Below are positions 28,701-64,000 of a stretch of DNA of 64,000 nt, piece by piece. Location of the stretch: contig OX387202.1 in assembly GCA_947561715.1 (NCBI GenBank), positions 5,469,001 through 5,533,000 of the forward strand, written 5' to 3'. The DNA is from Ascidia mentula (Eukaryota; Chordata; Ascidiacea; Phlebobranchia; Ascidiidae). The position numbers and the translations under genes were made by a program. Position 1 is the first letter of the stretch; every line of letters starts with the position of its first letter. Under the pieces are notes generated by a model that worked only from the letters and a program-made list of their open reading frames with translations, did no database searches and had not been told where the DNA came from.

Positions 28701-29645
28701 TTATTTTTTGTGAGTAAGTCGGTGCTTTTTAAGTCCTCCCAACTGAATAAATGTTTTTTGGCAAACAAGGCATTCATATGGTCTTTCTCCGGTGTGGATG
28801 CGAACGTGTAGCTTTAAACTTGTTGATGTGGAAAATTGTTTCATGCAAACATTGCATTTATATGGTTTTTCTCCTGTGTGTGTCCGAGTGTGTATCTGCA
28901 GGTTACCCAAAGTTGTAAAATTTTTTTCGCAAACCTTGCATTTATGAGGCTTTATCCCAGTGTGAACTCTCATGTGATTTTTAAGATGAATTTTTAACCT
29001 GAAATCCTTTTCGCAAATCTCACATTTATTTGATTTCTCTCCTGTGTGAGTGAGGAGATGAACTTTAAGGCCATGTTTTCTACCGAAAAGTTTCTTACAT
29101 ACGTTGCACTGATGTTTCTTCTCCTTCGTGTGGGTTGCAGTGTGGTCCTTTAACGTCCCCGAATATGCGAACCTTTTTTCACATACGTCACATTTGTATG
29201 GCTTTTCTCCTGTGTGTGTCCGTAGATGTAGCCTTAAGCCTTCTTTTGTAAACTGTTTCTCGCAGATATTACAAGGGTATTTCTGAGACTTCAATCCAGT
29301 GTGAATCATCAAATGAGTCTTAAGCCTCCCATGTTGTATAAAGCTTTTGTCACAAACATCACATTTGTAAGGTTTTTCTCCAGTGTGGATTCTCATGTGA
29401 GTTTTGCATTGCGTACTTGTAGTGAATCTCTTTTCACAAACTTCACAATGGAAGGGTTTCTCTTTCGTGTGAGTACGAAGATGTTGCCCAAGGCTTCCAC
29501 TTTGACTGAATGTCTTTTCACAAACATTGCATTCAAATGGTTTTGCTCCCGTGTGACTTCGAAGGTGAACTTTAAGCGAACTTTTCGATTTAAATTGTTT
29601 CTCGCAAACATTGCACTGGAAAGACTTTTCTCCGGCATGGTTCAT
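28701..29645 (-). CDS. C2H2 zinc-finger protein, 11 fingers, intact
   Basis: A single coding exon of 314 residues starts at MNHAGEKSFQC. Eleven classical fingers follow in tandem with TGEKP-type linkers. Examples are QCNVCEKQFKSKSSLKVH, KCDVCDKSFIQHGRLKTH and KCNVCMKQFSTSTSLKLH; the last is ECLVCQKTFIQLGGLKKH. There is no KRAB, BTB or other added domain. An acceptor at 29667 (TTTCCAG) is followed by an in-frame TGA before the ATG, so upstream exons are noncoding leader. The product is probably a nuclear DNA-binding regulator. Its broken tandem copy lies at 34835-35622 and an older relic at 5600-6000. Confidence 0.92.
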   Translation of the reverse strand: MNHAGEKSFQCNVCEKQFKSKSSLKVHLRSHTGAKPFECNVCEKTFSQSGSLGQHLRTHTKEKPFHCEVCEKRFTTSTQCKTHMRIHTGEKPYKCDVCDKSFIQHGRLKTHLMIHTGLKSQKYPCNICEKQFTKEGLRLHLRTHTGEKPYKCDVCEKRFAYSGTLKDHTATHTKEKKHQCNVCKKLFGRKHGLKVHLLTHTGEKSNKCEICEKDFRLKIHLKNHMRVHTGIKPHKCKVCEKNFTTLGNLQIHTRTHTGEKPYKCNVCMKQFSTSTSLKLHVRIHTGERPYECLVCQKTFIQLGGLKKHRLTHKK

Positions 29646-29932
29646 CTTGTATATATGAGATTCTCACTGGAAACAAAAACATTTTGTTTGCAATTTTGCA
29701 CACATGCAAATTTTTGAAACACTCTTTTAGATTCTTTACCTTTATATCTTGCTCCAAGTGCGCAATTAGGAATTTCAATGATTTTTATTAACACGGATTT
29801 TATCTTTGCGAACTTTAAAAACACTCTGGAAGGAAAGTAAGGAATTTGCTGTGAAAACCTAGCTTATCATATATAGCATGACTAGTACTGTCAAGAATTT
29901 TAGTCTTGCTAAAGGCGATCAAATTATAGATT

Positions 29933-30088
29933 AAAAATGTACTGATCTTCTGGCATAAACGTACTGTATTCTTACGACGTTTCGTCTGCCATGCGTTTCG
30001 TCTGCAATACCTGATGAAGTCTCGCCGCATGGCAGAAAAAACGTCGTAAGAATACAGTACGTTTATGCCAGAAGATCAGTACATTTTT
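29933..30088. repeat. Hairpin of Penelope-type ends, about 50-bp arms
   Basis: Arms 29933-29982 and 30040-30088 are near-perfect inverted repeats (CTTCTGGCATAAACGTACTG and its complement). The loop holds CTGATGAAG followed by GCCGCATGGCAGAAA and ACGTCG, which resembles the hammerhead-bearing ends of Penelope-like elements. Duplicated in unit B at about 35910-36065. Confidence 0.75.
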
Positions 30089-30404
30089 AATTGCAATATG
30101 CCTGGCAGCAACAGGAATTTCCGATTAAATTATAGATTAAATAGTTGAAAACATTCACATGTTTTGTTTATTCGTTTCGGTAAAATCTAACGTTTCGGTA
30201 AAATCTTATGCCATCATCAGTTGAAAATAACGCATTTGGACGGGAATATATCCAGGAGTATATAGAGCTGGACTAACTGACGTCATAGATCGCAGAGAAG
30301 TCTTTCGTGGATGGTTGCGTCATGTATTATTGCTATCAGTCACCCAGAGGCGGAAAATACGCAGCAAACGGTGCAGAACGGTGTTTTTTGCGTCATCTCT
30401 ACAA

Positions 30405-30431
30405 CTGATGATGACAAGTTCTTGCCGAAAC
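30405..30431 (+). other. Hammerhead-like motif, Penelope-end relic
   Basis: CTGATGA, a 15-base stretch with paired ends (GACAAG / CTTGCC, one mismatch), then GAAAC. This follows the conserved hammerhead core order. Catalytic ability is not shown. A copy lies at 36382-36408, where GAAAC has become GATAC. Confidence 0.45.
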
Positions 30432-30711
30432 GTTTCAACGGCATGGGCATGTCTTTTTATTCTCAGAATTATGAGTAAATCCGTTAATAATGTTCCTAAC
30501 ATAGATTAAATTTCTTACTAGCACAAGTGAATTACCTCATGCCAAACTCTTTGGAAAATCAGTTTAATTGGGTCAGACAGTGCAGTTTGTTTATTTCAGT
30601 AACACCAGTCAAATTATGACATGTTATCGCACTGCCCGGGTGTTTGCCTCTATACAACAACATAATTTGTTCAGGGTGTCAAAATGGATATCCTTGTTCT
30701 CAACTTTCAAA

Positions 30712-31119
30712 TGACAGTTCCTGATGCAACGATCTTATAATGACGAAGCAAAAATATTGCTACGTCATCACCATCAAGGCAACGGCTGAGTTGTGGAATA
30801 TGTTCAATGCATGTGTGTGTAAGAAATTCCTATTTCCCATGTGATAAGTTAAAGTGCTAGTTCATGTTATAGTGCAAATTATATCCTCTGGTCTGGGCTG
30901 CCTGCATTACAGTCTAGCGTTTGGTCATTCTAGTCTTACTACTATCGCGTGACAAGTGCACGCTTTGCCTGCTTCGGTCCATCGTAAGGAACGGTTCACA
31001 TGGGACAGAAATTGCTTACACACACATGCATTGAACATATTGTACAGCACAGCTGTTTCCTTGATGATGAAGACGTAGCAATATTTTAGCTTGGTAATTA
31101 TAAGATCGTTGCACTGTCA
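30712..31119. repeat. Foldback element, about 120-130-bp inverted arms
   Basis: Left arm 30712-30843 and right arm 30997-31119 are imperfect inverted repeats sharing the ACACACATGCATTGAACATA block and ATAAGATCGTTGCA. A 153-base spacer separates them. Copied in unit B (about 36689-37094). Only the right-arm sequence begins the third copy at 56692. Confidence 0.8.
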
Positions 31120-31149
31120 CCTCAAACTATGGTCACGAAATCGCATTTG

Positions 31150-32060
31150 ACTGATTTTCGCCCGTAGATTAAACTAGTAATATTCTCTCTACAATTCAAA
31201 CTTCATCACTGAGTTAACAAACACTGTATGTGGTCAAGCATATCTTTGAGCAGGCGATCACTATTTTGTACCGGGGAAGGGGAAAAACAATCGTCTTTCT
31301 TATTTGTAAAGAACAATGCTTGGTTCTAGTATGAAGATAACGCTTACACCTAACAAGCGTTCTTGTCACTTATCTTACCCGATGATTATTCTCTGTTCCA
31401 ATTGATGTATTCTTATCAACCGCTGCCAAAATAATCAAGTTTTGCACGTTAGAAACCAGCACAAAGTAAACTTCCAGTTACAACATTGCTTTTGTGCAAT
31501 ACATAGAGTGTTCAACATTGCATAGTAAACTTTCTGCAGCATTTTGGGGTTTACAATATTCTAGACTGTTATTATAGGGTGACTATTATATAGGAAGTAA
31601 AATTTATACAACTTACATCGAGGCAGCAAATTTTTACAAACACCTGTAGTGATGCACGCTACACCACGATTCTACAAGGTAAAACATGACTTTAGCATAA
31701 CACAACAACATAACCTTTTCATGCTTTGTATATAACACAAAAATCATTGCAAATTCACTCAACCTTCAAAAAACCTTTACTTTGACCTAATAAAACGATC
31801 TTTAAAAAGTATGATAGAAAAGAACACAAGATTCCTCCAATGAACAATCATTTCTTGATACATGCTTATCTGCGATGGCCACTGTGCAACACGCATGTTT
31901 TCCAACCTAATTCCCTTCACAACTGGAAAGCAGACGGATTTAGGCTTTCCTGCAGAACTCCCAACAGCTTTCTGGCATCCGAAACGACGACAGACATTTT
32001 TTGTCGCACACTGTTGTGAACGCCTACTGTTTTCCGTTTGCTCATGACGCCCAATTATAG
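31150..32060. repeat. Dispersed repeat copy in unit A
   Basis: Same family as 7850-8830, sharing the TATTTTGTACCGGGGAAGGG, ACAAGATTCCTCCAATGAAC and GGATTTAGGCTTTCCTGCAG blocks. No gene seen here. A short TAAC tandem run follows near 32078. Confidence 0.75.
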
Positions 32061-32931
32061 ACGATTTCGACTTTAACTAACTAACTAACTGGTACTTAAC
32101 AGAAGTAGCTGTTATTCGCTCAATCACTAACGCGCTTGTTCACTTTAATTCCCGCCGCCTGATGGTCATGACCAGCGGGACTCCACACGAAACGGCGCAT
32201 TGAAACGCCGTTTCGTTCAGATACTTTAACACTTTAAAGACCAATGCAAAATGCGTCGGACGGTTGGAGTTCTTATGGAAAACAAAGGGGTTTAAAGGCT
32301 GTAGTTCAAACAGACCGATACGCTATTCCAAGCACACACGAATACTTCACTCAGATATCAGTTACATGTAAATTTTTTGTCATTTAACGTAGTTTATTTT
32401 TACCACAGGTAGCTGGTATTCATTCAACACCAGATGATCCCAGCTTTTATGCGTTTGACGTTTAGTTGAATAATCTCTGAGGTAATTTGTGTTTGCGATA
32501 TAATAAATACTGCATGTTGTTTGGTTGCGCAATGCTGTTTACATATTCAACCAACATTATAACAATGGGCATAAATACGATACGAACGGATGCTTGTGCC
32601 ATGGGCATTGTTCTAATATCCTGCAGTAGTTGTTGTTTACCGGGTTGTAATACGGGATATGATATATACAATAATAATGCGTTGCTTCGGTTTAACATAG
32701 CTGTGGTTGAAAGAGACTGCAGTCACAGGCACCTCGACAAGTTTAGACAACTTGATACGAATATACGAAGAGCGTAACATTGAATGGCAGAATTAGAACG
32801 CGACAATAAGTACATAACTTTTAGTGAGACACATCGTAATGACTGCATAAACGAATCTTAGTGTTTAGTTTTGTGTTGAGGGTAAGGTTACACTCATTGT
32901 AAAGGTAAATTTGGTTCAAATTATCTAGAAT
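32061..32931. other. Upstream region of the truncated trefoil-sushi copy
   Basis: Conserved in all three copies (38040-38903 and 57750-58612). It contains a cysteine-rich open frame without a convincing start or splice context. It may hold the promoter of the trefoil-sushi genes. Confidence 0.45.
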
Positions 32932-34808
32932 ATGCGTTTGTTCAATACTTGCGCCGTTGTCTGGTGCATGTTGTTGGTTTGCTGCTTTGAGACGGAAGCA
33001 TCTGGGAGGACTTGTGCTGTGTCGTATGCAAGAAGACAAGCTTGTGCGAGCAGCTTTATCACCCACACACAGTGTGAAAGAAGGTGGGAGTTGTCATGAT
33101 TGCTTTGTCGATAAAATATTCAATAATCTGAATAACTTGTTTCAAAACTCAATGTTTATACAAGCAGAGATTGCTGCTTTGACGAACAACCAAACGATCC
33201 GTTCATGCAATGTTACCGGAAAGGTAAGAAGTCTTAACATACGGGGTAATATATAAATGTGCTTGTGTGTGATATTGTTCTGGTGGTGGGTTATTCATAT
33301 TCTAACCGGGCACCCTGCGTCATCTTTCTTATATATTTGATTCTTTTGGGGATTTTAGTTATGCGCAGCTATACGACTTTATTACCTAACTAGCTAAACA
33401 GAGCTTTTATGGCGAGATATTTACGTGAGGGAAATTGTTGTTGAAATTTATGTGAGCTTCTCGCACGAACGCGCGATGGTAAGACAGCTTTGTCATTAAT
33501 TTTGATACCTATGGTAATGTATGTTTCTGATTACTTTGAACATTTGCCGTATTGCGAAAAAATCAGATAAGACGTTTTTGCTAAAACAAATGTTTGTTGT
33601 TTGAATATTTTTTCCGAGTAAAGGTAAATAAGGCTGCAACAATAGCTGCGTGGCAGCGGTAAAGTTCTAAAATTCGTGCAGATGAATGACACCAATCATC
33701 ACAACGTTGTTTGTAGCCTTTGCCAATTCACATATTATCTGTTAAGCTCAGGCCATGACCCAAATATAAGTTTTTGGTTTGAAAATTATTCTTCGCATAG
33801 AACATGGTCCACCATTTTTGACTAATTGTTTGTCCCTGCAGAACATTTTCCAATAGCCTATCAATAGTATATATCTTGGCCACTCTATACAAATAATCCC
33901 GGCACAACACACATTTTTGGGTATCAATACATGCCTTCTTGCTCTAACCACCTCAGGGACGGGTGATAAGGGATTACACCTTATCATGTCTGGCTACTAA
34001 ACCTAAGTTTTCACAAAGACTTAGCAATGATATTAACTCTAATATTTAGTTTATTTTTAAAAAAATTTAGGACGTGTGTAGTATTGTCGATGCAGACAGT
34101 GAACGAAACAAACGCTTCGTTTAAGTAAGATGTTTTGCATGCTTTTAAAATACCTCTGTGTAAAGCTTTGCTAACCATTTTTGTTCGGAAAGAAAGATAT
34201 TTCCAACAAACATGCCCGAAACGCTAGTTTAACCATGTCACGCATGAGGGAAATCCCCCTCATGAGAAAGGGCATCGGGGAGATCCCCATCGCCCTTCCA
34301 TGAGGTGGTTAGAGTATGTACATTGTTTTCGACATCTTTCCGTGAAAATGTCTCCTTTGAATGCAAATTATGACATATTTTTGATGAAAACTTTTTTTTT
34401 TTGCAAATACTATCAATAAATTCATGTTTAGATTCAACTTCCCTGCGATGTGAGGAAACAAACGTTCTGTGCGGTTCATTCTTTTTCCCATCAAGGTAAT
34501 ATGTGCAAAACTTGTTGTGTATACGTGGATTCCAGAATTCTTTTTGCAGGCGATTATGCCAGCTTTGGGGATGTTGTTGGAATGATGATAAAGAAGTCTG
34601 TAATTATCCTTCAAAATATGGTAAGATATTAAAAAAAAACGCTTTCTGACCTCGCCTAAAATAATTTGGAAACAACCTTCAGGAGACGATGTTTGTCCTA
34701 CTGTTATGTCGCAATAACACGTTTTGTGTGTTTATCCAGTGTGTGTTTCTCCTCCAACAACTGATTTTGGAATATTTTCAGTGAGTCTCCACATTTTTTG
34801 CATTTATA
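32932..34808 (+). pseudogene. Truncated first copy of the trefoil-sushi gene
   Basis: Exons match the intact gene: 32932-33083 (signal peptide MRLFNTCAVVWCMLLVCC and trefoil start), 33168-33223, 34432-34495, 34550-34620 and the start of the first sushi exon at 34740. The sushi exon is cut at about 34793 by the duplication junction, and no later exon follows. The second trefoil-like domain has lost a cysteine (FFCPSR in the intact copy is FFFPSR here). Splice sites of the remaining exons are preserved. It could at most yield a short secreted trefoil peptide. Confidence 0.85.
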
Positions 34809-34834
34809 TGGTTTGTTTCATGCAAACATTGCAT

Positions 34835-35622
34835 TTATCTGGTTTTTCTCCTGTGTGTGTCCGAGTGTGTATCTGCAGGTTACCCAAAGTTGTAAATTTT
34901 TTTTCGCAAACCTCGCATTTATGAGGCTTTATCCCAGTGTGAACTCTCATGTGATTTTTAAGATGAAGTTTTAACCTGAAATCCTTTTCGCAAATCTCAC
35001 ATTTATTTGATTTCTCTCCTGTGTGAGTGAGGAGATGAACTTTAAGGCCATGTTTTCTACCGAAAAGTTTCTTACATACGTTGCACTGATGTTTCTTCTC
35101 CTTCGTGTGGGTTGCAGTGTGGTCCTTTAACGTCCCCGAATATGCGAACCTTTTTTCACAAACGTCACATTTGTATGGCTTTTCTCCAGTGTGTGTCCGT
35201 AGATGTAGCCTTAAGCCTTCTTTTGTAAACTGTTTCTCGCAGATATTACAAGGGTATTTCTGAGACTACAATCCAGTGTGAATCATCAAATGAGTCTTAA
35301 GCCTCCCATGTTGTATAAAGCTTTTGTCACAAATATCACATTTGTAAGGTTTTTCTCCAGTGTGGATTCTCATGTGAGTTTTGCATTGCGTACTTGTAGT
35401 GAATCTCTTTTCACAAACTTCACAATGGAAGGGTTTCTCTTTCGTGTGAGTACGAAGATGTTGCCCAAGGCTTCCACTTTGACTGAATGTCTTTTCACAA
35501 ACATTGCATTCAAATGGTTTTGCTCCCGTGTGACTTCGAAGGTGAACTTTAAGCGAACTTTTCGATTTAAATTGTTTCTCGCAAACATTGCACTGGAAAG
35601 ACTTTTCTCCGGCATGGTTCAT
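34835..35622 (-). pseudogene. Broken zinc-finger copy
   Basis: Starts with the same ATG and first four fingers as the intact gene. An AAG codon after finger 4 has become TAG (near 35265), giving about 118 residues. Fingers 5-9 remain readable downstream in frame, and finger 10 is cut by the duplication breakpoint. The four-finger product could still be made, but the arrangement reads as a dying duplicate. Confidence 0.88.
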
Positions 35623-35909
35623 CTTGTATATATGAGATTCTCACTGGAAACAAAAACATTTTGTTTGCAATTTTGCACACATGCAAATTTTTGAAACACT
35701 CTTTTAGATTCTTTACCTTTATATCTTGCTCCAAGTGCGCAATTAGGAATTTCAATGATTTTTATTGACACGGATTTTATCTTTGCGAACTTTAAAAACA
35801 CTCTGGAAGGAAAGTAAGGAATTTGCTGTGAAAACCTAGCTTATCATATATAGCATGACTAGTACTGTCAAGAATTTTAGTCTTGCTAAAGGCGATCAAA
35901 TTATAGATT

Positions 35910-36065
35910 AAAAATGTACTGATCTTCTGGCATAAACGTACTGTATTCTTACGACGTTTCGTCTGCCATGCGTTTCGTCAGCAATACCTGATGAAGTCTC
36001 GCCGCATGGCAGAAAAAACGTCGTAAGAATACAGTACGTTTATGCCAGAAGATCAGTACTTTTTT
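35910..36065. repeat. Hairpin of Penelope-type ends, unit B copy
   Basis: Copy of 29933-30088 with the same arms and the loop motif CTGATGAAG. Confidence 0.7.
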
Positions 36066-36688
36066 AATTGCAATATGCCTGGCAGCAACAGGAATTTCCG
36101 ATTAAATTATAGATTAAATAGTTGAAAACATTCACATGTTTTGTTTATTCGTTTCGGTAAAATCTAACGTTTCGGTAAAATCTTATGCCATCATCAGTTG
36201 AAAATAACGCATTTGGACGGGAATATATCCAGGAGTATGTAGAGCTGGACTAACTGACGTCATAGATCGCGGAGAAGTCTTTCGTGGATGGTTGCGTCAT
36301 GTATTATTGCTATCGGTCACCCAGAGGCGGAAAATACGCAGCAAACGGCGCAGAACCGTATTTTTTGCGTCATCTATACAACTGATGATGACAAGTTCTT
36401 GCCGATACGTTTCAACGGCATGGGCATGCCTTTTTATTCTCAGAATTATGAGTAAATCCGTTAATAGTGTTCCTAACATAGATTAAATTTCTTACTAGCA
36501 CAAGTGAATTACCTCATGCCAAACTCTTTGGAAAATCAGTTTAATTGGGTCAGACAGTGCAGTTTGTTTATTTCACTAACACCAGTCAAATTATAACATG
36601 TTATCGCACTGCCCGGGTGTTTGCCTCTATACAACAACATAATTTGTTCAGGGTGTCAAAATGGATATCCTTGTTCTGAACTTTCAAA

Positions 36689-37094
36689 TGACAGTTCCTG
36701 TTGCAACGATCTTATAATGACGAAGCAAAAATATTGCTACGTCATCACCATCAAGGCAACGACTGAGTTGTGCAATATGTTCAATGCATGTGCGTGCAAG
36801 AAATTCCTATTTCCCATGTGAAGTTAAAGTGCTAGTTCATGTTATAGTGCAAATTATATCCTCTGGTCTGGGCTGCCTACATTACAGTCTAGCGTTTGGT
36901 CATTCTAGTCTTACTACTATCGCGTGACAAGTGCACGCTTTGCCTGCTTCGGTCCATCGTAAGGAACGGTTCACATGGGACAGAAATTGCTTACACACAC
37001 ATGCATTGAACATATTGTACAGCACAGCTGTTTCCTTGATGGTGAAGACGTAGCAATATTTTAGCTTGGTAATTATAAGATCGTTGCACTGTCA
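36689..37094. repeat. Foldback element, unit B copy
   Basis: Copy of 30712-31119 with both arms retained and a small number of substitutions. Confidence 0.78.
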
Positions 37095-37126
37095 CCTCAA
37101 ACTATGGTCACGAAATCGCATTTGAC

Positions 37127-38040
37127 TGATTTTTGCCCGTAGATTAAACTAGTAATATTCTCTCTACAATTCAAACTTCATCACTGAGTTAACAAACACT
37201 GATGTATGTGGTCAAGCATATCTTTGAGCAGGCGATCACTATTTTGTACCGGGGAAGGGGAAAAACAATCGTCTTTCTTATTTGTAAAGAACAATGCTTG
37301 GTTCTAGTATGAAGATAACGCTTACACCTAACAAGCGTTCTTGTCACTTATCTTACCCGATGATTATTCTCTGTTCCAATTGATGTATTCTTATCAACCG
37401 CTGCCAAAATAATCAAGTTTTGCACGTTAGAAACCAGCACAAAGTAAACTTCCAGTTACAACATTGCTTTTGTGCAATACATAGAGTGTTCAACATTGCA
37501 TAGTAAACTTTCTGCAGCATTTTGGGGTTTACAATATTCTAGACTGTTATTATAGGGTGACTATTATATGGAAGTAAAGTTTATACAACTTACATCGAGG
37601 CAGCAAATTTTTACAAACACCTGTAGTGATGCGCGCTACACTACGATTCTACAAGGTAAAACATGACCTTAGCATAACACAACAACATAACCTTTTCATG
37701 TTTTTTATATAACACAAAAATTATTGCAAATTCACTTAACCTTCAAAAAACCTTTACTTTGACCTAATAAAACGATCTTTAAAAAGTATGATAGAAAAGA
37801 ACACAAGAATCCTCCAATGAACAATCATTTCTTGATACATGCTTATCTGCGATGGCCACTGTGCAACACGCATGTTTCCCAACCTAATTCCCTTCACAAC
37901 TGGAACGCAGACGGATTTAGGCTTTCCTGCAGAACTCCCAACAGCTTTCTGGCATCCGAAACGACGACAGACATTTTTTGTCGCACACTGTTGTGAACGC
38001 CTACTGTTTTCCGTTTGCTCATGACGCCCAACTATAGACG
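37127..38040. repeat. Dispersed repeat copy in unit B
   Basis: Collinear copy of 31150-32060. No gene seen. Confidence 0.75.
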
Positions 38041-38903
38041 ATTTCGACTTAACCTAACTAACTAACTGGTACTTAACAGAAGCAGATGTTACTCGCTCAA
38101 TCACTAACGCGCTTGGTCACTTTAATTCCCGCCGCCTGATAGTCATGACCAGCGGGACTCCACACGAAACGGCGCATTGAAACGCCGTTACGTTCAGATA
38201 CTTTAACACTATAAAGACCAATGCAAAATGCGTCGGACGGTTGGAGTTCTTATGGAAAACAAAGGGGTTTAAAGGCTGCAGTTCAAACAGACCGATACGC
38301 TATTCCAAGCACACACGAATACTTCACTCAGATATCAGTTACATGTCAATTTTTTGTCATTTAACGTAGTTTATTTTTACCATAGGTAGCTGGTATTCAT
38401 TTAACACCAGATGATCCCAGCTTTTATGCGTTTGACGTTGAATAATCTCTGAGGTAATTTGTGTTTGCGATATAATAAATACTGCATGTTGTTTGGTTGC
38501 GCAATGCTGTTTACATATTCAACCAACATTATAACAATGGGCATAAATACGATACGAACGGATGCTTGTGCCATGGGCATTGTTCTAATATCCTGCAGCA
38601 GTTGTTGTTTACCGGGTTGTAATACGGGATATGATATATACAATAATAATGTGTTGCTTCGGTTTAACATAGCTGTGGTTGAAAGAGACTGCAGTTACAG
38701 GCACCTCGACAAGTTTAGACAACTTGATACGAATATACGAAGAGCGTAACATTGAATGGCAGAATTAGAACGCGACAATAAGTACATAACGTTTAGTGAC
38801 ACACATCGTAATGACTGCATAAACGAATCTTAGTGTTTAGTTTTGTGTTGGGGGTAAGGTTACACTCATTGTAAAGGTAAATTTGGTTCAATTTATCTTG
38901 AAT

Positions 38904-51107: not shown

Positions 51108-51180
51108 ATGGTGAACCCGATGCTCGGTTCAATGGAGTTGAGATATGAGAGCAGTAACTGTATGGACATTGTGCATTGCC

Positions 51181-52130
51181 AGCCTGGATGCAACCTACCT
51201 TACCTTTAGAGGTAAATTTTACAAACACATTTTCGATACTGCCATGGGATCCCCACTTTCCGTTGTGGTCGCGAACATTGTCATGGAATCAGATGAAAAC
51301 AGGGTGTTGGCAACGTTTGCTAACCCTCCTAGATTTTGGAGGCGTTATGTGAACGACACATTCGTGGTCGTGCAACGGGATGACGTACAGTCACTTCTGT
51401 CGTATCTCAATTCCATTGAACCGAGCATCGGTTTCACCATGGAGCGCAAGCGAGGGAGTGAGTTGACATTTTTGGATGTTCTGGTTCGAAGAGAAGAGGG
51501 GACTCTCTCTACAAGGGTGTACCGCAAGGCCACCTATTCCAACAGGTATCTTTCGTTTCGTTCGGTGCATTCGATCTCACACAAGAGGGCGGTAGTACGC
51601 TCATTATGTACTCGTGCCGAATCGTTGATAACTGATGACGCTGAACGAGAGCAAGAGGTGGGTTATGTTGATGAAGCGCTTCTTGCTAACGGTTATTCCC
51701 GTTCCTTTCTCCGGCATAATCGAAGATTTATGCGGAGAAGTGATGAGGGGCAGCCCGCGGGTATAGTTGTATTATAGTATATTTCTGGACTTTACGAAAC
51801 GTAAAAACGACTGCTTGGCGACTTTAACATTCAGGATTTTGAACGGCCGGCCGCTACCATGCGTTCCTTCATATCTCACCCGAAAGACCGCATGCATGAT
51901 AAGCTCGACAAGAGGGGTGTTGTCTACAGCATTACCTGCGGATGGTGCAGCGGCTTGTGTACATTGGGGAAACCGGCCGTGCACTAAAAACGAGGTTGAA
52001 AGAACACCAAAGGGACGTAAACAACCATGAGGAGAAATGCTGCATAACAGCCGAAACGTCGAGAAACGTCAATGAAATAAAGTGTGCCAGAAGAGCAGCA
52101 TTCAGCAATAAAACATGCCTGTCAGCGTCA
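51181..52130 (+). mobile_element. Penelope-like element on the plus strand
   Basis: Open reverse transcriptase segment with the Penelope signatures DTAMGSPLSVVVANIVME, WRRYVNDTFVV (YxND in place of the usual YxDD), LTFLDVLVRREEG and RALLANGY-type ending. A GIY-YIG endonuclease piece follows (LVYIGETGRALKTRLKEH) near 51945-52005. The 3' end has ACAGCCGAAACGTCG. It is 5'-truncated. It lies back-to-back (5' ends facing) with the minus-strand element. Confidence 0.88.
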
Positions 52131-52249
52131 GTAACAATGTATTTACTGACACTTAACACACCTTACACTATTGCAAGTCATCGATTTCTGGTATCGGCTT
52201 GGATGTCAGTGGTTTCAATCCAAAGAACAAACTAATACTTTATCACTTA

Positions 52250-55200
52250 CTAATGAAACTTGCCACAATCTTTGGTTTTCCCAGATAGACAAAAGCATTC
52301 GTCACTTTTATCGGGACAGTCGATGACGTCATCACACACACTTGACCTTGAGATGATCATGGGGTCATTTGTACATTGAAAACATGAACGATGATTAAAT
52401 GGCTGAGAACTTCGAACGTCTCTACAAATGGCATATGTCAATTCTGTCTTATCTTAACTGAAAAGTACTTTTAACCAACCACAACAGTTCACAAATACCT
52501 GGCATCTCCATTCTCTGAGGTGTAACACAAATCGGATTTATCATCACAATCGGCAATGCCGTCCCATAGAAACAACTGCGGAAGATTGCATTGCCTGCCA
52601 TTACGAACACATTTGAATCCATGACCATTATTCCTGTGTCGGAAACCTGGACAGTCATTGCAAGGATCGCCATCACAAACAGTCGAACGTTTCCAACAAG
52701 CTGAATTCGGACATTGGAAGTAGGAGGGACAGTTGTACTCACATGGGGAGTTCCCCAGACAATGAGCAAGCTTGTCGCAGATTTCATTTTTTGAGTTACA
52801 GGAAATGTTGGCTTGATCCAATGTGTTGTAACAAACCACATTAGTGTCGAAACAATTGCAACGTGGTTTTGAACTAAATAAAATTAATAGTTTATTTGCA
52901 TCAATTAAATAAAAGGTCTTTTTAAAACTACCCAAAATACCCTTTATTGTTATGGCTGCACTGCTCATGGAATTTCCCATTACAACTGCATTCATCACTC
53001 ATATCAGGGCAATCTATGAAATCATCACATACACTTGACCTTGAGATGATCATGGGATCATTTGTACATTGGAAACACAATCGTTCGTTCAGGGATGAAG
53101 AAGTACCAATATCTCTGCAATAACGAATTTGTTTATAGATGCAATATTTTACCAGAAGCAAGCAGTTATTGCCGTTCTTTTTTAACATTTATCACCATTA
53201 ATATAAACAAAGTTCATTTGACTAAAACTATATTCATCTTTGCAAACGTTTCATTTTTGTCGTTGTCACAGCAATAGGAAGAGCGACGCCGAATAATAGT
53301 AAAATTGGGAGCACAGAGTGAGAGGAGAGTCTGGGGCAGAGCTGGCAAGTATGCATATGCAAAAAAAAAACAATCAAAAACAAAATACCTGACATCTCCA
53401 TTCTCCGAGGTGTAACACAAATCAGATTTATCATCGCAATCGGCAATGTCGTCCCATAGAAACAACTGCGGAAGATTGCAATTCCTGCCATTCCGAACAC
53501 ATTTAAATCCATGACCGTTATTCCAGTTTTGGAAAGCTGGACAGTCATTGCAAGGATTGCCATCACAAACAGTCGAACGTTCCCAACATGCTGAATTGGG
53601 ACACTGGAAATGGGAGGGGCAGCTAAAGTCACAATATGTTTTTCCAACACATTGGATTATTCCTTTGCAAAACTCCACCACTCTTAGGGCGCAAACTTTA
53701 TTTGAATTGTGGACGTCAAACTTGTTGTCACAACTGTAACAAAAGTAATGTATTACGTCATATAACAATAGTTTCGCGAGATTTGTGTTTGTAAATGTTT
53801 AAACATGAAGAGTCGTCATGGCTGATAATCTGTAAATGTTAGGTTTGGTTTTAAATAAACCTCATTAATGCCAACTGGTCATACACAACTAGGTATGCAA
53901 ATGTGTGATTAACAATGCACTTAAGTGGCAGAAGAGCCACTTAAGTGCATTGTTATTATGAGGTTTATTTAAAACCATTGTTCACTTAAGTGCACAATTT
54001 TCATTGTTTGCATTGTTCACTTAAGTGCACAATTTTCATTAATTACTATACCTGGCAGCAAAAAGAGCAGTAAATATCTTGTACTTTTGTTGCTGTTTTG
54101 AACACCTCTATGTTGCCATACCATTAGGAAAACCCGTAACTGAATCCGCAATGACCCCCGCCCCTTGAACAACATCCCCCAACACCTCATCCAGTCCCTC
54201 AAAAAGTGTATAAACTTTAAGCTCGCTGTTCAGCGGAACAGGGACAACACCATTCCTGAAGGTGTCCTGGTCGATGTCAAACACTCAATAAATATAAATT
54301 AATCAAACTTCTCTCCGCTCCAATCTTAAATCCGAAAAACTTAATCCTGTACCATTAATTAATTTGTTTTTTTTTTGCTCTTCACGTTTAGCATAACTTA
54401 CTCTTTCTGGTGTTATTTTCCTATCCTGTTTACTCTTCTTCCACATTTTTCTTTCAATTTAATTTGAATATTATGTAGCAGGTGTGTTCCGTTTTTTTTT
54501 TCTTGGTATGGATGGGAGGCCAACTTGTTAGCGAAAGCAATCGAGCTTCTGAATAATCGTGTGACGGGAATATTTAAAATGTGGGTCGAATTTTGGGGAA
54601 GTTTTCTGTATATTTTCGCAGAACCATGTTTGCTGTTTGAGTTCGAGTTGGGCAGAAAACATACGCGGGTTTCTGTGGCCATAAGGTTTGCAGGCTTGGC
54701 AGCCCAGGCATAGCAGCCTAGCTGGACCAGCCACTTTTTCCTGACAGGACGGGGCAAGATTTGAAAAATCAAACCTGCGCAGTGGGGCGGTCTTGCCAAT
54801 CAAGCCATTGCATGTAATATTACTGCGTTGTCTGATACGGTGGTAGAGATCCCCTACGTATATGTGAAGGTTGCCTGGCAAGTCGTGCGCTGATCCAGGC
54901 TGCAATTCCTCGACTGCCAAGCCTGCAAACCTCATGATAGCGATACGTTAGCTGTGATCGCCAAGGAAGGACCTGCGCATTAGGGCGATATTGCCAATCA
55001 TGCCATTGCATGAAATATTACTGGGTTTCTGCGGCGTCGCATTTGAGGTAGTTTACGTAGTTGTGTTGAATTGCCGAAGAACTAATGTGGTGCGCATTTC
55101 ACAAACAAAAGCTTTTACTTTGGTATGTGCGCCAGGTATTGAATTTATAAGAAGTAAATCAGAATTATATTAAATAAGCGGTGGTTGTAAGTGGGTGTAC

Positions 55201-56190
55201 ACTTTCGTGCGCTATAATAGTCAATACCTTCACATAAAGTTTTAGAAGTAAATGCTTCATGATTGTAACGTATTTATACCACCTGCATAACGTACTTATA
55301 CCACCACAAATATTTTAACTTTCGTTCTGCGCCAAAAATGTTTTACCGAAGAAACTAGTAATAAAGGCACAGAATGTTGCTTCTTCGTATTGCCGAATAA
55401 TACCACATGCGTAGTAATAATGCCATGTGTTACCTAACAATGTGCCACGTGTTCGGTAACAAAGCTCAATTTAGAAACAATAGGTTTTACTGGCGAACAT
55501 GAAATTTTTAGTTTTCTCGGTAAATTATGCAAAAAGATTGACGATTACGTTTATTTAAAATATTGTAAAGTCAACGCCAACTGTGATACGTTAGACGTGT
55601 TTTGCCACCCCTGATATACACCTTATCTTAGATTCACTCTTTGTGCCTTCCACTGGCCACTTACCTCAACAACATTATTGTTACGTGTGAGTGTTTCGTA
55701 ATCAATAATTCCCTTGAAACATTAAAGTAAAAACACTTCTGAACGCGCGGGATTTTGAAACTGTCTTTTTTTCTCTTTATAATAAACGGCTCAAAATTCG
55801 TTATTCTAATTAAAGTCAAACCCTGATAACATCGTCTATAGGTTGGTCTTATTTAAGTGCTTTCACCTCATGTGAGGACTGGTGAGGTTTTCAGGATAAG
55901 TGGGAAAGTTGGCCGGTTTCTCATCACTTCCGTCCCTGCAATCGGGATGAGGAAAACCATCACAAAACCTCGCAGCGGAGGCCCGCTCCCCACCATCGCA
56001 AGTAAACGCTGCACAAAACACATGAGCGTAAATCGATATGAAATCATTCATAATCTGTAAAAGTAACCAATATGTTTAATTAATTGGGAGTTTATAATTT
56101 GTAACAAAATCCTTACCTTCGCCAGGTTCATACAATGCCAAAGTAATTGTGATGAAAGAGAGCAGGATTCCAACCACCTTCAACCAATAC
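52250..56190 (-). CDS. LDL-receptor class A repeat protein, 5' exon not found
   Basis: Exons: 56117-56190, 55867-56008, 53389-53733, 52941-53114, 52499-52873 and 52250-52421, with phases fitting throughout. The first listed exon encodes a hydrophobic segment (VVGILLSFITITLALYEPGE), a signal peptide end or membrane anchor, and starts inside a codon, so an upstream exon with the ATG is missing. LDLa-type repeats follow, for example FCDGFPHPDCRDGSDE, SSVCDDFIDCPDMSDEC, LWDDIADCDDKSDLC and a C-rich variant (SACWERSTVCDG). The protein ends GKTKDCGKFH. The pairs 53389-53733 with 52941-53114 and 52499-52873 with 52250-52421 are tandem duplicates. Calcium-coordinating acidic residues are kept in most repeats. 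The ligand is unknown. Confidence 0.82.
53847..53976. repeat. Nested palindrome
   Basis: Outer arms GGTTTTAAATAAACCTCAT (53847-53865) and 53958-53976, inner arms AACAATGCACTTAAGTGGC (53911-53929) and 53936-53954, both perfect. It lies in the long LDLa-gene intron. Confidence 0.88.
53974..54040. repeat. Direct repeat containing CACTTAAGTG
   Basis: CATTGTTCACTTAAGTGCAC plus AATTTTCATT occurs twice head to tail, right after the nested palindrome, which carries the same CACTTAAGTG core twice more. Confidence 0.85.
54155..54480 (+). mobile_element. 5'-truncated LINE fragment of the same family as the 22-28 kb LINE
   Basis: The plus strand can be read as NFKLAVQRNRDN and EGVLVDV. These match HFKLAIQRNRGN and EEVLADV near the C-terminus of the LINE ORF2 at 22364. 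Only the last ORF2 codons and a 3' tail remain, as expected for a 5'-truncated insertion. It lies in the LDLa-gene intron, antisense to the gene. Confidence 0.75.
54684..54932. mobile_element. 249-bp element with perfect 19-bp inverted ends
   Basis: AGGTTTGCAGGCTTGGCAG at 54684-54702 and its exact complement at 54914-54932. No coding sequence. A target duplication is not clear. Half of a 53-bp direct repeat lies inside it and the other half outside. Confidence 0.65.
54773..55022. repeat. 53-bp direct repeat, two copies
   Basis: ACCTGCGCAGTGGGGCGG to ATATTACTG at 54773-54825 recurs at 54971-55022 with about ten differences. Confidence 0.75.
55023..55866. other. LDLa-gene intron, nothing else seen
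   Basis: AT-rich intron sequence with no exon supported. Confidence 0.5.
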
Positions 56191-56691
56191 CTGATAAAAA
56201 CACAAAGAGTTTGTATCTTACAATGATATATTTCTCTAACTCAGGGGAATGGCGTCATCATTGCTTCTAGTGAAGTTTTCCAAACTTTATATCTAAGAAA
56301 CATTGCAAGGTTATTTAACTAGCTATTTAACCGCCATAATTTCATTGGCTTTTTACATAAACTGTCGTTACTTTTTTTCTTTTTTATCTTTACTCTCATT
56401 TGCTTGTTGATCAAACGCTTAGAAGAAATATTCAGTAGTTTTCGCCAAATCTCGACAGCTCACAGAACCCATCATACTCAAAAGTTTAAAAACAAAGGTT
56501 TAATCAACACACTGGTTCAACCATATGTCTGATTTAAATCCGTCGTGTTTCCATCTCTCACAAAGGCCCGGCAAATATTGTAAGCATAATAACGGACCAA
56601 AATTTCGTGCCGGGCTTAAAAAGCGACTGACGAAGCGTAAGACACCGTGCAAGTTAATGACACCTGTAAACTAGATCACAGACTTTTGCAG
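56191..56691. other. Upstream of the LDLa gene, first exon not found
   Basis: The missing start exon may lie here or further up. No ATG exon with a matching phase-1 donor could be chosen with confidence. Confidence 0.4.
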
Positions 56692-58612: not shown

Positions 58613-61600
58613 ATGTGTTTGTTCAATACTTGCGCCGTTGTCTCGTGCATGTTGCTGGTTTGCTGCTTTGAGACGGAAGCATCTGGGAGGACTTGTGCTG
58701 TGTCTTATGCAAGAAGACAAGCTTGTGCGAGCAGCTTTATCACCCGCATACAGTGTGAAAGAAGGTGGGAGTTGTCATGATTGTTTGTTGATGCAATGTT
58801 TAAATAATCCGAATAACTTGTTTCAAAACTCAATGTTTATACAAGCAGAGATTGCTGCTTTGACGAACAACCAAACGATCCTTCCATGCAATGTTACCGG
58901 AAAGGTAAGAAGTCTTAACATGTGGGGTAATATATAAATGTGCTTGTGAGTTTTCCGTTGTGGTGGTGGATTATTCATATTCTAACTGGGAACCCTACGT
59001 CAACCTTCCCATATATTTGATTCTTTTGGGGATTTTAGTTATGCGCAGCTGTACGACTTTATTACCTAACTAGCTAAACAGAGCTTTTATGGCGAGATAT
59101 TTACGTGAGGGAAATTGTTATTGAAATTTATGTGAGCTTCTCGCATGAACGCGCGATGGTAAGACAGCTTTGTCATTAATTTTGATACCTATGGTAATGT
59201 ATGTTTCTGATTACTTTGAACATTTGCCGTATTGCGAAAAATTCAGATAAGACGTTTTTGCTAAAACAAATGTTTGTTGTTTGAATATTTTTTCCGAGTA
59301 AAGGTAAATAAGGCTGCAACAATAGCTGCGTGGCAGCGGTAAAGTTCTAAAATTCGTACAGGTGAATGACACCAATCATCACAACGTTGTTTGTAGCCTT
59401 TGCCAATCCACATATTATCTGTTAAGCTCAGGCCATGCCCCAAATATAAATTTTTAGTTTGAAAATTATTCTTCGCAGAGAACATGGTCCACCATTTTGG
59501 ACTAATTGTTTGTCGCTGCAGAACATTTTTCAATAGCCTATCAATAGTATATATCTTGGCCACTCTATACAAATAATCCCGGAACAACACACATTTTTTG
59601 GCATCAATACATACCTTCTTGCTCTAACGACCTCAGGGACGGGTGATAAGGGATTTCCCCTTATCATATCTGGCTACTAAACCTAAGTTTTCACAAAGAC
59701 TTAGCAATAATATTAACTCTAATATTTAGTTTATTTTTTAAAAACTTTAGGACGTGTGTAGTATTGTCGATGCAGACAGTGAACGAAACAAACGCTTCGT
59801 TTAAGTAAGATGTTTTGCATGCTTTCAAAATACCTCTGTGTAAAGCTTTGCTAACCATTTTTGTTCGGAAAGAAAGATATTTCCAACAAACATGCCCGAA
59901 ACGCTAGTTTAACCCTGTCACGCATGAGGGAAATCCCCCTCATGAAGAAGGGCACCGGGGAGATCCCCATCGCCCTACTATGAGGTGGTTAGAGTATGTA
60001 CATTGTTTTCGACATCTTTCCGTGAAAATGTCTCCTTTGAATACAAATTATGACATATTTTTGATGAAAACTGTTTTTTGCAAATACTGTCAATAAATTC
60101 ATGTTTAGATTCAACTTCCCTGCGATGTGAGGAAACAAACATTCTGTGCGGTTCATTCTTTTGTCCATCAAGGTAATATGTGCAAAACTTGTTGTGTATA
60201 CGTGGATTCCAGAATTCTTTTTGCAGGCGATTATGCCAGCTTTGGGGATGTTGTTGGAATGATGATAAAGAAGTCTGTAATTATCCTTCAAAATATGGTA
60301 AGATATTAAAAAAAAACGCTTTCTGACCTCGCCTAAAATAATTTGGAAACAACCTTCAGGAGACGATGTTTGTCCAACTGTTATGTCACAATAACACGTT
60401 TTGTGTGTTTATCCAGAATGTGTTTCCCCACCAACAACTGATGGAATATTTTCACCAATACAAGATTCCTATGACCCGTCAGAAACTGTTACGTATACCT
60501 GTGAATCTCCACATGAGATTCCAGAAGATTCGGTATTAACTTGCCTTAATGATGGAACATGGAGTAAAGATAGTGCACCCGTGTGTAATGTAAATGGTGA
60601 GCGGTAATGATTGCGATTTAAAATCGTTTCTTCTGTGAAAAGAGTTTGTTTTTTCTAAGTATTGCTGATGCACAATGTATTTGGATTTGTGTTGAAAACT
60701 GTAATGTAGAATGAAGACTAAAAAAAAATTGCTCTATATCCTTTTTCTGTATTTCAATAATTTTAACCCACAAAGCCGTCGAAAAACTAATAAAACCTAT
60801 TTTGTATGACCCAGCTTGTCCAACCCCGGTCAATATTCCTTATGCAACTTTCGCAATCACACGCCCAACAGGAGCCACAGTAAATGCACCTGGCACTATA
60901 GTCCAATATACTTGTGACAGTGGATTCACAATAGTCGGATCAGACATCATGACATGTGGGAGTAATGGAGATTGGAATGCCAACCCACAGTGCAATGAAA
61001 ATGGTAAACGTTCAAGAATTGCTTATAGTCATGGCAGCATATTCACAAGACTTAACATTAAAAATATATTTGGTTTCAGGTTAGCCGCTTAAATACTTAT
61101 TACTCTCAAGGACTATCCGCAGCAAGTGTGAAACTAATATTTAAACTTCGCTTTCTTACGTTTTAGAATGTTGTCCGCCTCCATCAATTGATCGTGGTTC
61201 TTATTCACCGGTGACTGACATTTATTCGAGAAATTCCCAAGTTATTTACTCATGTGATGATGGTTCAACACCGACTGGTACAAGCATGAATACTTGCCAG
61301 GATGATGGTACATGGTCTGTAACTGGCCTTTCTTTGCCAACATGTCCAATGGGTGAGTGTTTGCATTAGTCCAGCATTTTTGTTTGATCTAATACAATTC
61401 CTCAATTTACCATATAAACCTTGAACAAATTTCATCAGAACAGTATACCGAACAAACGCTGTGTTACATGCATGTAAACTCATGTAAAGCTCTCTTGAAG
61501 CTTTCCACAAATATTTTCAATTAGCAGCCACGCTTCAACCCACCACGACTCTTTCAACAACCCCTCAGTGCGACAATTCCCCACCCATCTGTTGCCCGGG

Positions 61601-64000
61601 TTACACAACATCTGGGTCTCTATGCGTTGGTAAGATTATCGGGATGGAATGATATTGCCATCACATAAATTGGTTGTGTAGTTTATTACTGTCACGATGG
61701 ATCTCGAAGTTTCAAAGAGCTTTAGACACGCACGACATCAATCATTTTTTACTTTTACAGATGTCGACGAATGCGCTCTTGGAAACCACTCTTGTCATGT
61801 GGAAGCTAATTGCAAAAATACTGTTGGAAGCTATAATTGTCAGTGCAAGGAATGGTTTGCAGGCAATGGTTACAACTGCAGAGGTATGTCCAACAAAGAT
61901 GGCCTCAAATCTATCTAAATGTGAACACTTACTCCTTAGGAATAGTTAGCAGTGTTTTATAAGAAGCAAAAGCCTTTAGAAGTTGTCGGACAAACGCAAC
62001 TGCCAGAAACTCTGTTTGTACAGTGGTTAGTTTGTGTAGCAACGTTTTGTTTTGTGATTATTGAAGGTTTTTGCAATGAATCTTGTTCTGGCCGCTGCGA
62101 TGAAGGACTAAATGGTTACACTTGTTTTTGTACTCATTCGTCTACTGATGGGTGTCCTCCAGGCAAGTCCTTTACATACTTTTTTTCTCAATGCAAAAAA
62201 AAATTCTGATAATCCAGAATATGTAATCGTATCATGGTCACTTTCGGATAATTGTTGCGTTTTTGACATCGCCTAATCCGGATTTTGGTACATTTCCTGC
62301 ATTACTTTTGCATTTGTGTTCACAAAACCAGGTTTTGGTTAAAATTTTTTTCTTTTTAAACTGATATTGTGGTTTACTTGTTGCGCGTGTGACGATAAAG
62401 CATTTTAAATCAGAAACTACACTCAACTTTGTCATGTTTTAAGGCGCACCGGTGACAAGAGATTTAAAAATTTTGTGGAAAACTCACAACAGTGCCTTTG
62501 TCACGTGGGAGGCAAGCAACGCTAATTGGGCTTACCCTTCAATAAACGGTGGAATATTTTATCACTCCAGTGGCACCAGACAAGCTGGATTTTTATACCT
62601 AAATTCTGACACTAAATACTCTGTAACGTTGACTCTTCACAACAGTTTAGGTTCAACTACATCCCTCCTACAATTCGAAACACGTAAGCTTCGACAACCG
62701 TTTATCCTTTTAACTTTGGATTTTATTTTACTACTTAAATTAAGTTAATCTGCTCACAAACTAAAGTTCTGGTTAGCCACTTAGTTACTGAAATACCGAC
62801 AAAAATACGTAAAACGAACATAAACAGATGGTCTTGCTGTTGAATTAAATATTTTATCCTGTAATTTATAACTACTTTCGAAACTTACATATCGCCCAAG
62901 TCCCATCATATGTTGACCCCACCACGCCCCCTCCTACAAACTCCAATTGCGTCAATTCTCCACTAAACTGTTGCCCTGGTTACACAACATCCGGGTTACA
63001 GTGCATTGGTAAGTCTGTCGACATTTAACAAATATGAAAAAGAATGACGCGTGTTTTCATTGATAAATTGAGGATCGTTTATATCGTAACTTTTCGCTAC
63101 CAGGCTCCCGCAAATCGCTATGACATCAATTTTACCTAAACTACTTTTCACTGTTAAAGATTTCTACAAACAAGGCTCTACAAGGCTACACCCCAAAAAA
63201 TATGGAAGTTATGCTAACTTATTTCTGACAACAAAAAAATTAAATAATCATGCAAAGTTGCAATATAAATTTGCGAAAACCAACTTATCCTGTTTGAAAT
63301 ATATTATGTGAAATGTAATAATTAAAGCTGTGGTGTTCAATCCTTAACACGGCCATCAGCTCCTGGTAAACCCAGTTAATAGGTTTAATAGCGTCAATAG
63401 CGCCGATATCGCCAATGAGCATTTTAGAAACACCATTTTTTGGTATCAAATCCAGTTCCAGTATGCACCAGATGACTACACAAGTAACTCTAAAAACTCA
63501 CTAAGAAAAAAAACTAGCATAAACCAATTTGAACATCAAAATGTCAAAACTACCCCTTCGTTTCCAGACATTGATGAATGCACAAACGGCTCATCAGGTT
63601 GCCATTCAAACGCTCAATGCAACAATACCGATGGTGGATTTATTTGTTCTTGCAACGAATGCTATGTGGGAAATGGATTTATTTGCTCACGTATGTATGT
63701 TAGCTTAGTAAAACCAATGTGGTGATGAAATGTTATGCAGGTGATAAAAAAATAGTCCACAAGCTTCGTTTAAGAACGTAAGCGAATAAATAACTTTTAA
63801 CAGTTAGATTTCTTAAATTCAGAACATTGTGGAGGTGTAAATTGCCATGACCGTGGAAATTGTTCGGGATATATTGGATTTTCGTCAGCTACTTACTGTA
63901 TGTATAGTCCACGTAAGGTATATCTTTAACTAACAAACACAATTTTAGTTAATCCTCCTTCTATTTCCAACCTTACATTGCTATGGAGATCTAGCACTGG
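58613..64000 (+). CDS. Third copy of the trefoil-sushi-EGF-FN3 gene, cut by window end
   Basis: Exons: 58613-58764, 58849-58904, 60109-60172, 60227-60297, 60417-60596, 60815-61003, 61167-61352, 61528-61629, 61761-61883, 62067-62162, 62444-62683, 62901-63008, 63568-63690, 63823-63897 and from 63949. Phases and splice sites match the complete gene at 38904-45304, including the GC donor after 62162. The visible part covers the signal peptide, two trefoil-like domains, three sushi domains, two full linker/EGF/EGF/FN3 blocks up to the start of the second FN3. All domain cysteines are kept. Differences from the complete gene are few: VCVSPP to ECVSPP, loss of one Phe in the first sushi domain, and FM to SM in the first trefoil. 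It looks functional as far as it can be read. Confidence 0.87.

What the first reader, a model, noticed from the sequence alone, without database searches (positions are those of the whole stretch)
28838..64000. Young tandem family of secreted trefoil-sushi-EGF-FN3 genes
One complete gene (38904-45304), one intact but window-cut copy (58613-64000), one truncated copy (32932-34808) and one relic exon (45914-46012) lie in the same orientation. Introns are as similar as exons, so the duplications are recent. The order signal peptide, two trefoil-like domains, three sushi domains and three linker/EGF/EGF/FN3 blocks is not one I recognise as a named family. Local birth and death of secreted mosaic receptors is typical of recognition or allorecognition loci, but that role is inference.
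Basis: partly seen in the sequence, partly recalled or inferred. Interest (0 to 1): 0.85.

Follow-up and report, generated by a model that had tools for sequence, protein, structure and literature searches.

The report
Recently duplicated, fused secreted-protein gene
A sea-squirt gene that joins the front half of one secreted-protein family to the body of another, with both parent families still present in the same genome, has recently been copied in tandem; it is a clear example of a new gene made by shuffling existing parts, but what the protein does is not known.

Summary
A 20-exon gene (38904-45304, 867 aa) encodes signal peptide, trefoil, trefoil-like, three sushi, then three (linker)-EGFca-EGF-FN3 blocks. 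A second intact copy starts at 58613 and ends 1,087 bp past the window (866 aa). A truncated copy (from 32932) and a relic first exon (45914-46008) are also present.

The puzzle of an unrecognised architecture has an answer outside the window: the gene is a chimera. Its 5' flank, signal peptide, trefoils and three sushi domains match a trefoil-sushi family (13 exon-1 hits elsewhere). In the 5 closest of these, sushi 3 is followed by a Cys-rich exon and more sushi. Everything from the first EGF on matches a separate EGF-EGF-FN3 family (45 FN3-2 exon copies elsewhere, 37 in one 0.41-Mb array). The two members read have their own predicted signal peptide directly before the first EGF. No other locus found carries both halves. 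The break lies in a 408-bp interval after sushi 3. The chimera was then duplicated (dS about 0.02-0.05).

Allorecognition is not supported: trefoil 1 lacks the TFF lectin residues and B-C change looks constrained. Species is very probably Ascidia mentula. No transcript evidence was available. The role is probably a secreted matrix or recognition protein (inference).

The parts
38330..38903 (+). 5' flank (putative promoter/5' UTR) shared with the trefoil-sushi family
   Evidence: DNA similarity to relative L029 begins at 38330, 574 bp before the ATG
38904..39055 (+). Copy B exon 1: signal peptide and first half of trefoil 1
   Evidence: exon and ATG conserved in L029
39140..39195 (+). Copy B exon 2: second half of trefoil 1 (DCCFD...C)
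40325..40388 (+). Copy B exon 3: first half of trefoil-like domain 2
   Evidence: same length and splice sites in L029
40443..40513 (+). Copy B exon 4: second half of trefoil-like domain 2 (GCCW...C)
40632..40814 (+). Copy B exon 5: sushi 1
41033..41221 (+). Copy B exon 6: sushi 2
41385..41570 (+). Copy B exon 7: sushi 3, last exon shared with the trefoil-sushi family
41571..41978 (+). Fusion interval: similarity to L029 ends at 41586; similarity to L030 starts at 41971 (exon 9). Contains linker exon 8 and no signal-peptide-like ORF
41743..41847 (+). Copy B exon 8: Pro/Thr-rich linker, 77% identical in DNA to exon 12 over 96 bp, not found at this place in L030 and L031
41979..42900 (+). Copy B exons 9-11: EGFca (41979-42101), EGF-like (42284-42379), FN3-1 (42661-42900)
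43118..44411 (+). Copy B exons 12-15: linker (43118-43225), EGFca (43785-43907), EGF-like (44040-44114), FN3-2 (44166-44411)
44479..45304 (+). Copy B exons 16-20: linker (44479-44571), EGFca (44634-44756), EGF-like (44817-44921), FN3-3 (44981-45235), stop exon (45294-45304)
58613..64000 (+). Copy C, intact; continues to 65087 outside the window (866 aa)
32932..34780 (+). Copy A, truncated: signal peptide, two trefoils, 41 nt of sushi 1; frame ends at about 34922 in zinc-finger DNA
45914..46008 (+). Relic of exon 1 with in-frame TGA
28836..34780 (+). Duplicated block, matches 34813-40672 (about 97-98%)
34813..40672 (+). Duplicated block, matches 28836-34780
36980..49590 (+). Duplicated block, matches 56696-69560 (partly beyond window); divergence up to 5.4% per 500 bp in the 5' part, 0.07% downstream of the gene
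49589..56641 (.). Block repeated in inverted orientation at 79319-72372 (outside window), in two pieces of 98.5% and 95.0% identity

Best explanation
The locus is a young tandem array of a chimeric gene made by exon shuffling. A copy of the 5' part of a trefoil-sushi gene (5' flank, signal peptide, two trefoils, three sushi exons) was joined, in the interval after sushi 3, to the body of an EGF-EGF-FN3 gene, standing in for that gene's own signal-peptide exon and for the Cys-rich exon plus further sushi exons that follow sushi 3 in the closest trefoil-sushi genes. Because the domain exons are phase 1-1, the join keeps frame. The product is predicted to be secreted and soluble: two small disulfide domains and three sushi domains at the front, on a calcium-binding EGF/FN3 rod. 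Later segmental duplications gave an intact copy (C), a truncated copy (A) and a relic, and B and C have probably exchanged sequence by gene conversion. SHOWN by sequence: architecture, both related families, the break interval, duplications. INFERRED: direction (fusion, not fission), joined transcript, secretion, gene conversion, and the role. My best guess for the role is a secreted matrix, mucus or body-fluid binding protein with multivalent contacts, not an allorecognition molecule. The confidence is for the chimera and its origin; for the role it is about 0.3.
For: L029 (C71) read: same 7 exons, then a Cys-rich exon and more sushi (one Pfam-scored), no convincing EGF or FN3 match. By coordinates the Cys-rich exon lies about 120 bp after sushi 3, followed by sushi 4 and 5, in the 5 closest loci (C70 x4, C71 x1) and not in the window. 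C-terminal half: an FN3-2 census with 94 of 94 candidates scored and 69 matches gives 47 strong hits: 2 window, 37 on C72 (12.491-12.899 Mb, one partial), 5 on C2, 3 on C71; none lies near an exon-1 hit except in the window. L030 (C71:16.04M) and L031 (C72) both begin with their own predicted signal-peptide exon directly before EGFca. C-terminal identity B-L030 328/527 (62%), L030-L031 276/515 (54%), B-L031 259/514 (50%). Break: L029 DNA similarity runs in two stretches from 38330 to 41586 and stops; L030 similarity starts at exon 9. No signal-peptide-like ORF lies between exons 7 and 9 in B or C, so the EGF-FN3 part has no secretion start of its own there. Coding constraint: B-L029 dN 0.091, dS 0.230 over 300 codons; B-L030 differences by codon position 83/71/198 over 355 codons.
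Against: No transcript joins exon 7 to exon 8 or 9 here. Direction rests on three C-terminal sequences. The N-terminal half is far less diverged from L029 (dS 0.23) than the C-terminal half is from L030 (dS saturated), so either the C-terminal donor lineage is gone or the N-terminal half has been renewed by gene conversion. Searches scored only 52 of 1599, 150 of 1789 and 131 of 584 first-look candidates, so a chimera with a weak match could be missed; one search scored all. The only other co-occurrence seen is loose: weak EGF and FN3-like hits at C67:21.885M (34-57%), about 100 kb from an exon-1 hit at C67:21.988M, not examined. No other tunicate genome could be searched.
Confidence: 0.75

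Rival explanations
1. Polymorphic allorecognition or self/non-self receptor-ligand locus.
For: Secreted mosaic proteins, tandem birth and death, and a large sister array (37 FN3-2 copies in 0.41 Mb). fuhc-sec of Botryllus is also a secreted protein with EGF domains (PMC12065747 passages).
Against: A. mentula is a solitary ascidian (title of PMC11109543), though this does not exclude gamete recognition. B-C change looks constrained (13 replacement, 10 silent codons; dN/dS about 0.36), on few differences. No polymorphism data.
Confidence: 0.08
2. Structural matrix, tunic or mucus protein; copies kept for dosage.
For: Calcium-binding EGF and FN3 domains, no transmembrane-strength segment, 10 N-glycosylation sequons, 75 Cys; constrained divergence.
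Against: Closest solved-structure hits for the sushi part are complement proteins, which may reflect the domain type only. Trefoil 1 does not keep the mucin-lectin pair.
Confidence: 0.35
3. Soluble innate immune or complement-like recognition factor.
For: The sushi triplet hits CR1, factor H, CR2 and membrane cofactor protein; both related families are expanded.
Against: Sushi domains are common outside complement (general knowledge); no ligand or expression evidence.
Confidence: 0.25
4. Fission: the long gene is ancestral and the two families arose by splitting it.
For: Not excluded by three C-terminal sequences.
Against: L030 and L031 each have a predicted signal peptide directly before EGFca, and the 5 closest trefoil-sushi loci share another continuation after sushi 3; fission would need more than one replacement.
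Confidence: 0.12
5. Two adjacent genes, not one: a truncated trefoil-sushi gene followed by an EGF-FN3 gene.
Against: Only 408 bp between exons 7 and 9, with no signal-peptide-like ORF in either copy; splice sites and phases join in frame in B and C.
Confidence: 0.06
6. Copy C, or part of it, is an assembly artefact (second haplotype placed in tandem).
For: Ascidians are highly polymorphic (recalled), and B-C 500-bp bins are 94.6-100% identical.
Against: Divergence is graded rather than uniform; nested blocks A/B/C plus an inverted block; the published assembly is PacBio HiFi with Hi-C, QV 64.9, duplicated BUSCO 1.2% (PMC11109543 passages), if it is the same assembly.
Confidence: 0.08

Closest known systems
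Trefoil-sushi family of the same genome (for example L029, C71:15.286-15.291M)
   Same: Signal peptide, two trefoils, sushi 1-3, exon lengths, splice sites and 5' flank
   Different: After sushi 3 it has a Cys-rich exon and more sushi exons; no convincing EGF or FN3. L029 itself has an in-frame TAA in the Cys-rich exon
EGF-EGF-FN3 family of the same genome (for example L030, L031; array on C72:12.49-12.90M)
   Same: Three EGFca-EGF-FN3 blocks with linkers, same order, 50-62% aa identity
   Different: Own predicted signal peptide directly before the first EGF; no trefoil or sushi; no linker before block 1
Vertebrate trefoil factors TFF1-TFF3
   Same: Trefoil 1 has the six-Cys pattern and is a sequence hit
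   Different: The lectin residues Asp/Asn and Trp of TFFs (PMC7221086 passages) are replaced by Ala and Phe (Ser in copy C) in trefoil 1; by my own Cys alignment trefoil 2 has neither
Botryllus fuhc-sec and fester families
   Same: Secreted with EGF domains (fuhc-sec); sushi domain (fester) (PMC12065747 passages)
   Different: Those carry Ig domains, and fester is membrane bound; no trefoil or FN3 is mentioned in the passages read
Ciona vCRL1
   Same: Ascidian sushi-domain protein proposed for recognition (PMC9265791 passage)
   Different: Transmembrane sushi protein (recalled); no trefoil-EGF-FN3 layout known to me (recalled)

Membership tests
Trefoil-sushi family of this genome | Signal peptide, trefoil x2, sushi x3 with the same exon structure | tested here: met
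   7 of 7 exon lengths and splice sites equal to L029
Trefoil-sushi family of this genome | Cys-rich exon and further sushi exons after sushi 3 (seen in the 5 closest loci; not found near the other 8 of 13 exon-1 loci) | tested here: not met
   No Cys-rich exon match in the window
EGF-EGF-FN3 family of this genome | Three EGFca-EGF-FN3 blocks in the same order | tested here: met
EGF-EGF-FN3 family of this genome | Own signal peptide directly before the first EGFca, no trefoil or sushi | tested here: not met
   Seen in 2 of 2 members read (L030, L031); no such exon between exons 7 and 9 of B or C
TFF trefoil lectins | Six-Cys P-type domain | tested here: met
   Pfam 3.8e-5 and TFF1 hit, for trefoil 1; trefoil 2 alone gives no Pfam hit
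TFF trefoil lectins | GlcNAc-alpha-1,4-Gal contacts Asp/Asn20 and Trp47 | tested here: not met
   Alignment to 6v1c gives Ala and Phe in trefoil 1 of B; copy C and L029 have Ser for Phe
Ascidian allorecognition genes | High allelic polymorphism and effect on fusion or fertilisation | not testable with these tools
   One assembly, one haplotype
Complement regulators | Sushi repeats that bind C3/C4 fragments | tested here: inconclusive
   Sushi repeats present and sequence hits to CR1, factor H and others; binding not testable

The most novel reading that the evidence does not exclude
A new class of secreted recognition protein was born in this lineage by giving the body of a rapidly expanding EGF-FN3 array family the promoter, signal peptide and trefoil-sushi head of another expanding family. 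It is now amplifying and diversifying by gene conversion, and copy A could yield a stand-alone two-trefoil peptide.
Probability: 0.15. Interest if true: 0.7.

Novelty: new variant of a known kind. Interest (0 to 1): 0.45.

Why it matters
Exon shuffling at phase-1 introns is the textbook route to mosaic extracellular proteins, but cases in which both parent families survive in the same genome and the break can be placed in a few hundred bases are useful: they let one read the order of events (fusion, then tandem duplication, truncation and conversion). It also points to a large ascidian EGF-EGF-FN3 array (37 FN3-2 exon copies in 0.41 Mb) and a trefoil-sushi family, for which my paper searches listed no description; these may matter more than the window genes themselves.

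Tried and rejected
A first exon model with one 170-nt exon 2 in another frame, instead of a split trefoil, was rejected: phases did not join. A 25-nt intron before FN3-3 was rejected for a 59-nt intron that keeps the frame. I expected the 'two trefoils' to be a misreading; trefoil 1 is clearly real and trefoil 2 plausible. A TFF-type mucin-lectin mechanism was considered and not supported. A TIL (trypsin-inhibitor-like) label for the Cys-rich exon of L029 was not supported by Pfam, so I call it only Cys-rich. Sushi/EGF hits at about 110-134 kb in window coordinates (outside the window) are weak, 25-47% identity; near those at 110-112 kb is a stretch that looks to me like a trypsin-like protease (by eye, no domain search). 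No further copy of the gene was found within 334 kb around the window. Literature: searches for trefoil/sushi/EGF/ascidian, trefoil/Ciona/mucin, allorecognition/sushi/EGF/fibronectin/tunicate, trefoil domain/Ciona, domain shuffling/ascidian/sushi, and Ascidia mentula/gene family listed no paper whose title or abstract start describes this architecture; the 12 rows shown do not contain the species name at all. Of papers I saw search listings, and passages of five; the library is open-access only. No structure prediction was run.
Full report
WHAT WAS CHECKED. I rebuilt the gene from the DNA. Copy B has 20 exons between 38904 and 45304 and one open frame of 867 residues; the domain exons are phase 1-1 and each trefoil is split by a phase-2 intron. 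Pfam scores Trefoil, three Sushi, three EGF_CA/EGF_3 and two fn3 domains. Trefoil 1 also finds human TFF1 among solved structures (E about 0.001). Trefoil 2 and FN3-1 are not scored by Pfam in copy B; they rest on the Cys pattern and on homology. Copy C runs from 58613 to 65087, 1,087 bp past the window end, with 20 of 20 exons intact and 866 residues. Copy A keeps exons 1-4 and 41 nt of exon 5. The relic exon is real, and part of it is also matched after copy C.

DUPLICATIONS. The blocks are 28836-34780 = 34813-40672 and 36980-49590 = 56696-69560; a third block, 49589-56641, recurs inverted at 79319-72372 outside the window. B-C divergence is up to 5.4% per 500 bp in the 5' part and 3 mismatches in 4,286 aligned bases downstream of the gene, where there are also 187 gap bases. 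That gradient suggests recent gene conversion or a mosaic duplication history (inference). B and C differ at 10 silent and 13 replacement codons (dN 0.007, dS 0.020); A-B over 384 nt: dN 0.027, dS 0.053. These numbers are small and show no excess of replacement change. A search of 334 kb around the window found no further copy.

THE GENE IS A CHIMERA. A whole-genome translated search with the 867-aa protein gave 94 matches, window copies included; those outside the window fell into two sets that share no locus (52 of 1599 candidates scored). Set 1 matches only the trefoil-sushi half. A census with FN3-2 in which 94 of 94 candidates were scored gave 69 matches, 47 of them strong: 2 in the window, 37 on C72 within 0.41 Mb (one partial), 5 on C2 and 3 on C71; the other 22 are weak (26-36% identity), 21 of them in these same loci and one on C67.

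I read one member of set 1 (L029) and two of set 2 (L030, L031). L029 has the same seven N-terminal exons as copy B, with identical lengths and splice sites, then a Cys-rich exon containing a TAA and further sushi exons, and no convincing EGF or FN3. By coordinates the same Cys-rich exon, about 120 bp after sushi 3, and sushi 4 and 5 follow in the 5 closest set-1 loci (C70 x4, C71 x1) and not in the window; no Cys-rich exon match is listed near the other 8 exon-1 loci on C67, C52 and C1, so their layout is open. L030 and L031 each have a predicted signal-peptide exon directly before the first EGFca and then the same three blocks as the window gene. DNA similarity to L029 runs, in two stretches, from 38330 to 41586, that is from 574 bp before the ATG to 16 bp after sushi 3; similarity to L030 starts at exon 9. 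Between exons 7 and 9 there is no signal-peptide-like frame in B or C. The break therefore lies in 41571-41978. Linker exon 8 is 77% identical in DNA to exon 12 over 96 bp and was not found at this place in L030 and L031, so it was probably added in this lineage (inference).

DIRECTION AND AGE. In the EGF-FN3 half, B is closer to L030 (62%) than L030 is to L031 (54%) or B to L031 (50%); since both others are SP-EGF genes, one fusion in the window lineage is the shortest story. The N-terminal half differs from L029 by dS 0.23, whereas synonymous sites against L030 are saturated. So the fusion may be fairly recent, or the N-terminal half has been renewed by conversion; I cannot separate these. 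It predates the B-C duplication, since both copies carry it. Coding constraint is seen in both halves.

FUNCTION. The protein has a hydrophobic N-terminus, no other stretch of transmembrane strength, 75 Cys and 10 N-glycosylation sequons, so it is predicted to be secreted. In TFFs two side chains, Asp/Asn20 and Trp47, contact the mucin sugar (PMC7221086, passages). In trefoil 1 these are Ala and Phe (Ser in copy C), and by my own Cys alignment trefoil 2 has neither, so TFF-like lectin activity is not supported. The sushi triplet hits complement proteins, which may reflect only the domain type. My order of likelihood is matrix or mucus protein, then soluble immune factor, then allorecognition; all are inference.

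SPECIES. Contig lengths C70 21,170,000, C71 19,871,177 and C72 19,661,885 fit chromosomes 6, 7 and 8 of Ascidia mentula (21.17, 19.87 and 19.66 Mb; PMC11109543, passages). The held total is 195.84 Mb in 79 contigs against 196.98 Mb in 95 scaffolds in print, a difference I cannot explain. No other tunicate genome was available.

Noticed in passing
window 14081-15577 (-): Open frame with NACHT and NOD2 winged-helix matches, that is a NOD-like receptor gene or fragment, about 13 kb before the first duplicated block.
   Followed up: partly
window 28704-29663 (-) and 34807-35640 (-): C2H2 zinc-finger frame at the 5' edge of the two first duplicated units, one open frame in the first and split into two frames in the second; related DNA (72-75% identical) lies at 5569-5990.
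   Followed up: partly
window 52492-53798 (-): Two Cys-rich frames that share a 251-bp stretch of 90% identity, with no Pfam match, inside the block that recurs inverted at about 75-76 kb.
   Followed up: partly
window 22367-26021 (-): Non-LTR retrotransposon-like frames (endonuclease, reverse transcriptase); only described.
   Followed up: no
window 8314-8808: Two stretches about 75% and 85-89% identical to DNA upstream of the trefoil genes (31162-31955, 37137-37932), possibly an older partial copy of the unit without the gene, or a repeat.
   Followed up: no
G000 C72:12491450-12899254: Array of 37 FN3-2 exon copies of the EGF-EGF-FN3 family (one partial) in 0.41 Mb, 31 of 37 on the minus strand.
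   Followed up: partly
G000 C71:1626307-1633593: 13 trefoil exon matches within 7.3 kb; genome-wide 83 trefoil matches on 9 contigs at E <= 0.1, which does not include the intron-split trefoils of the window.
   Followed up: no
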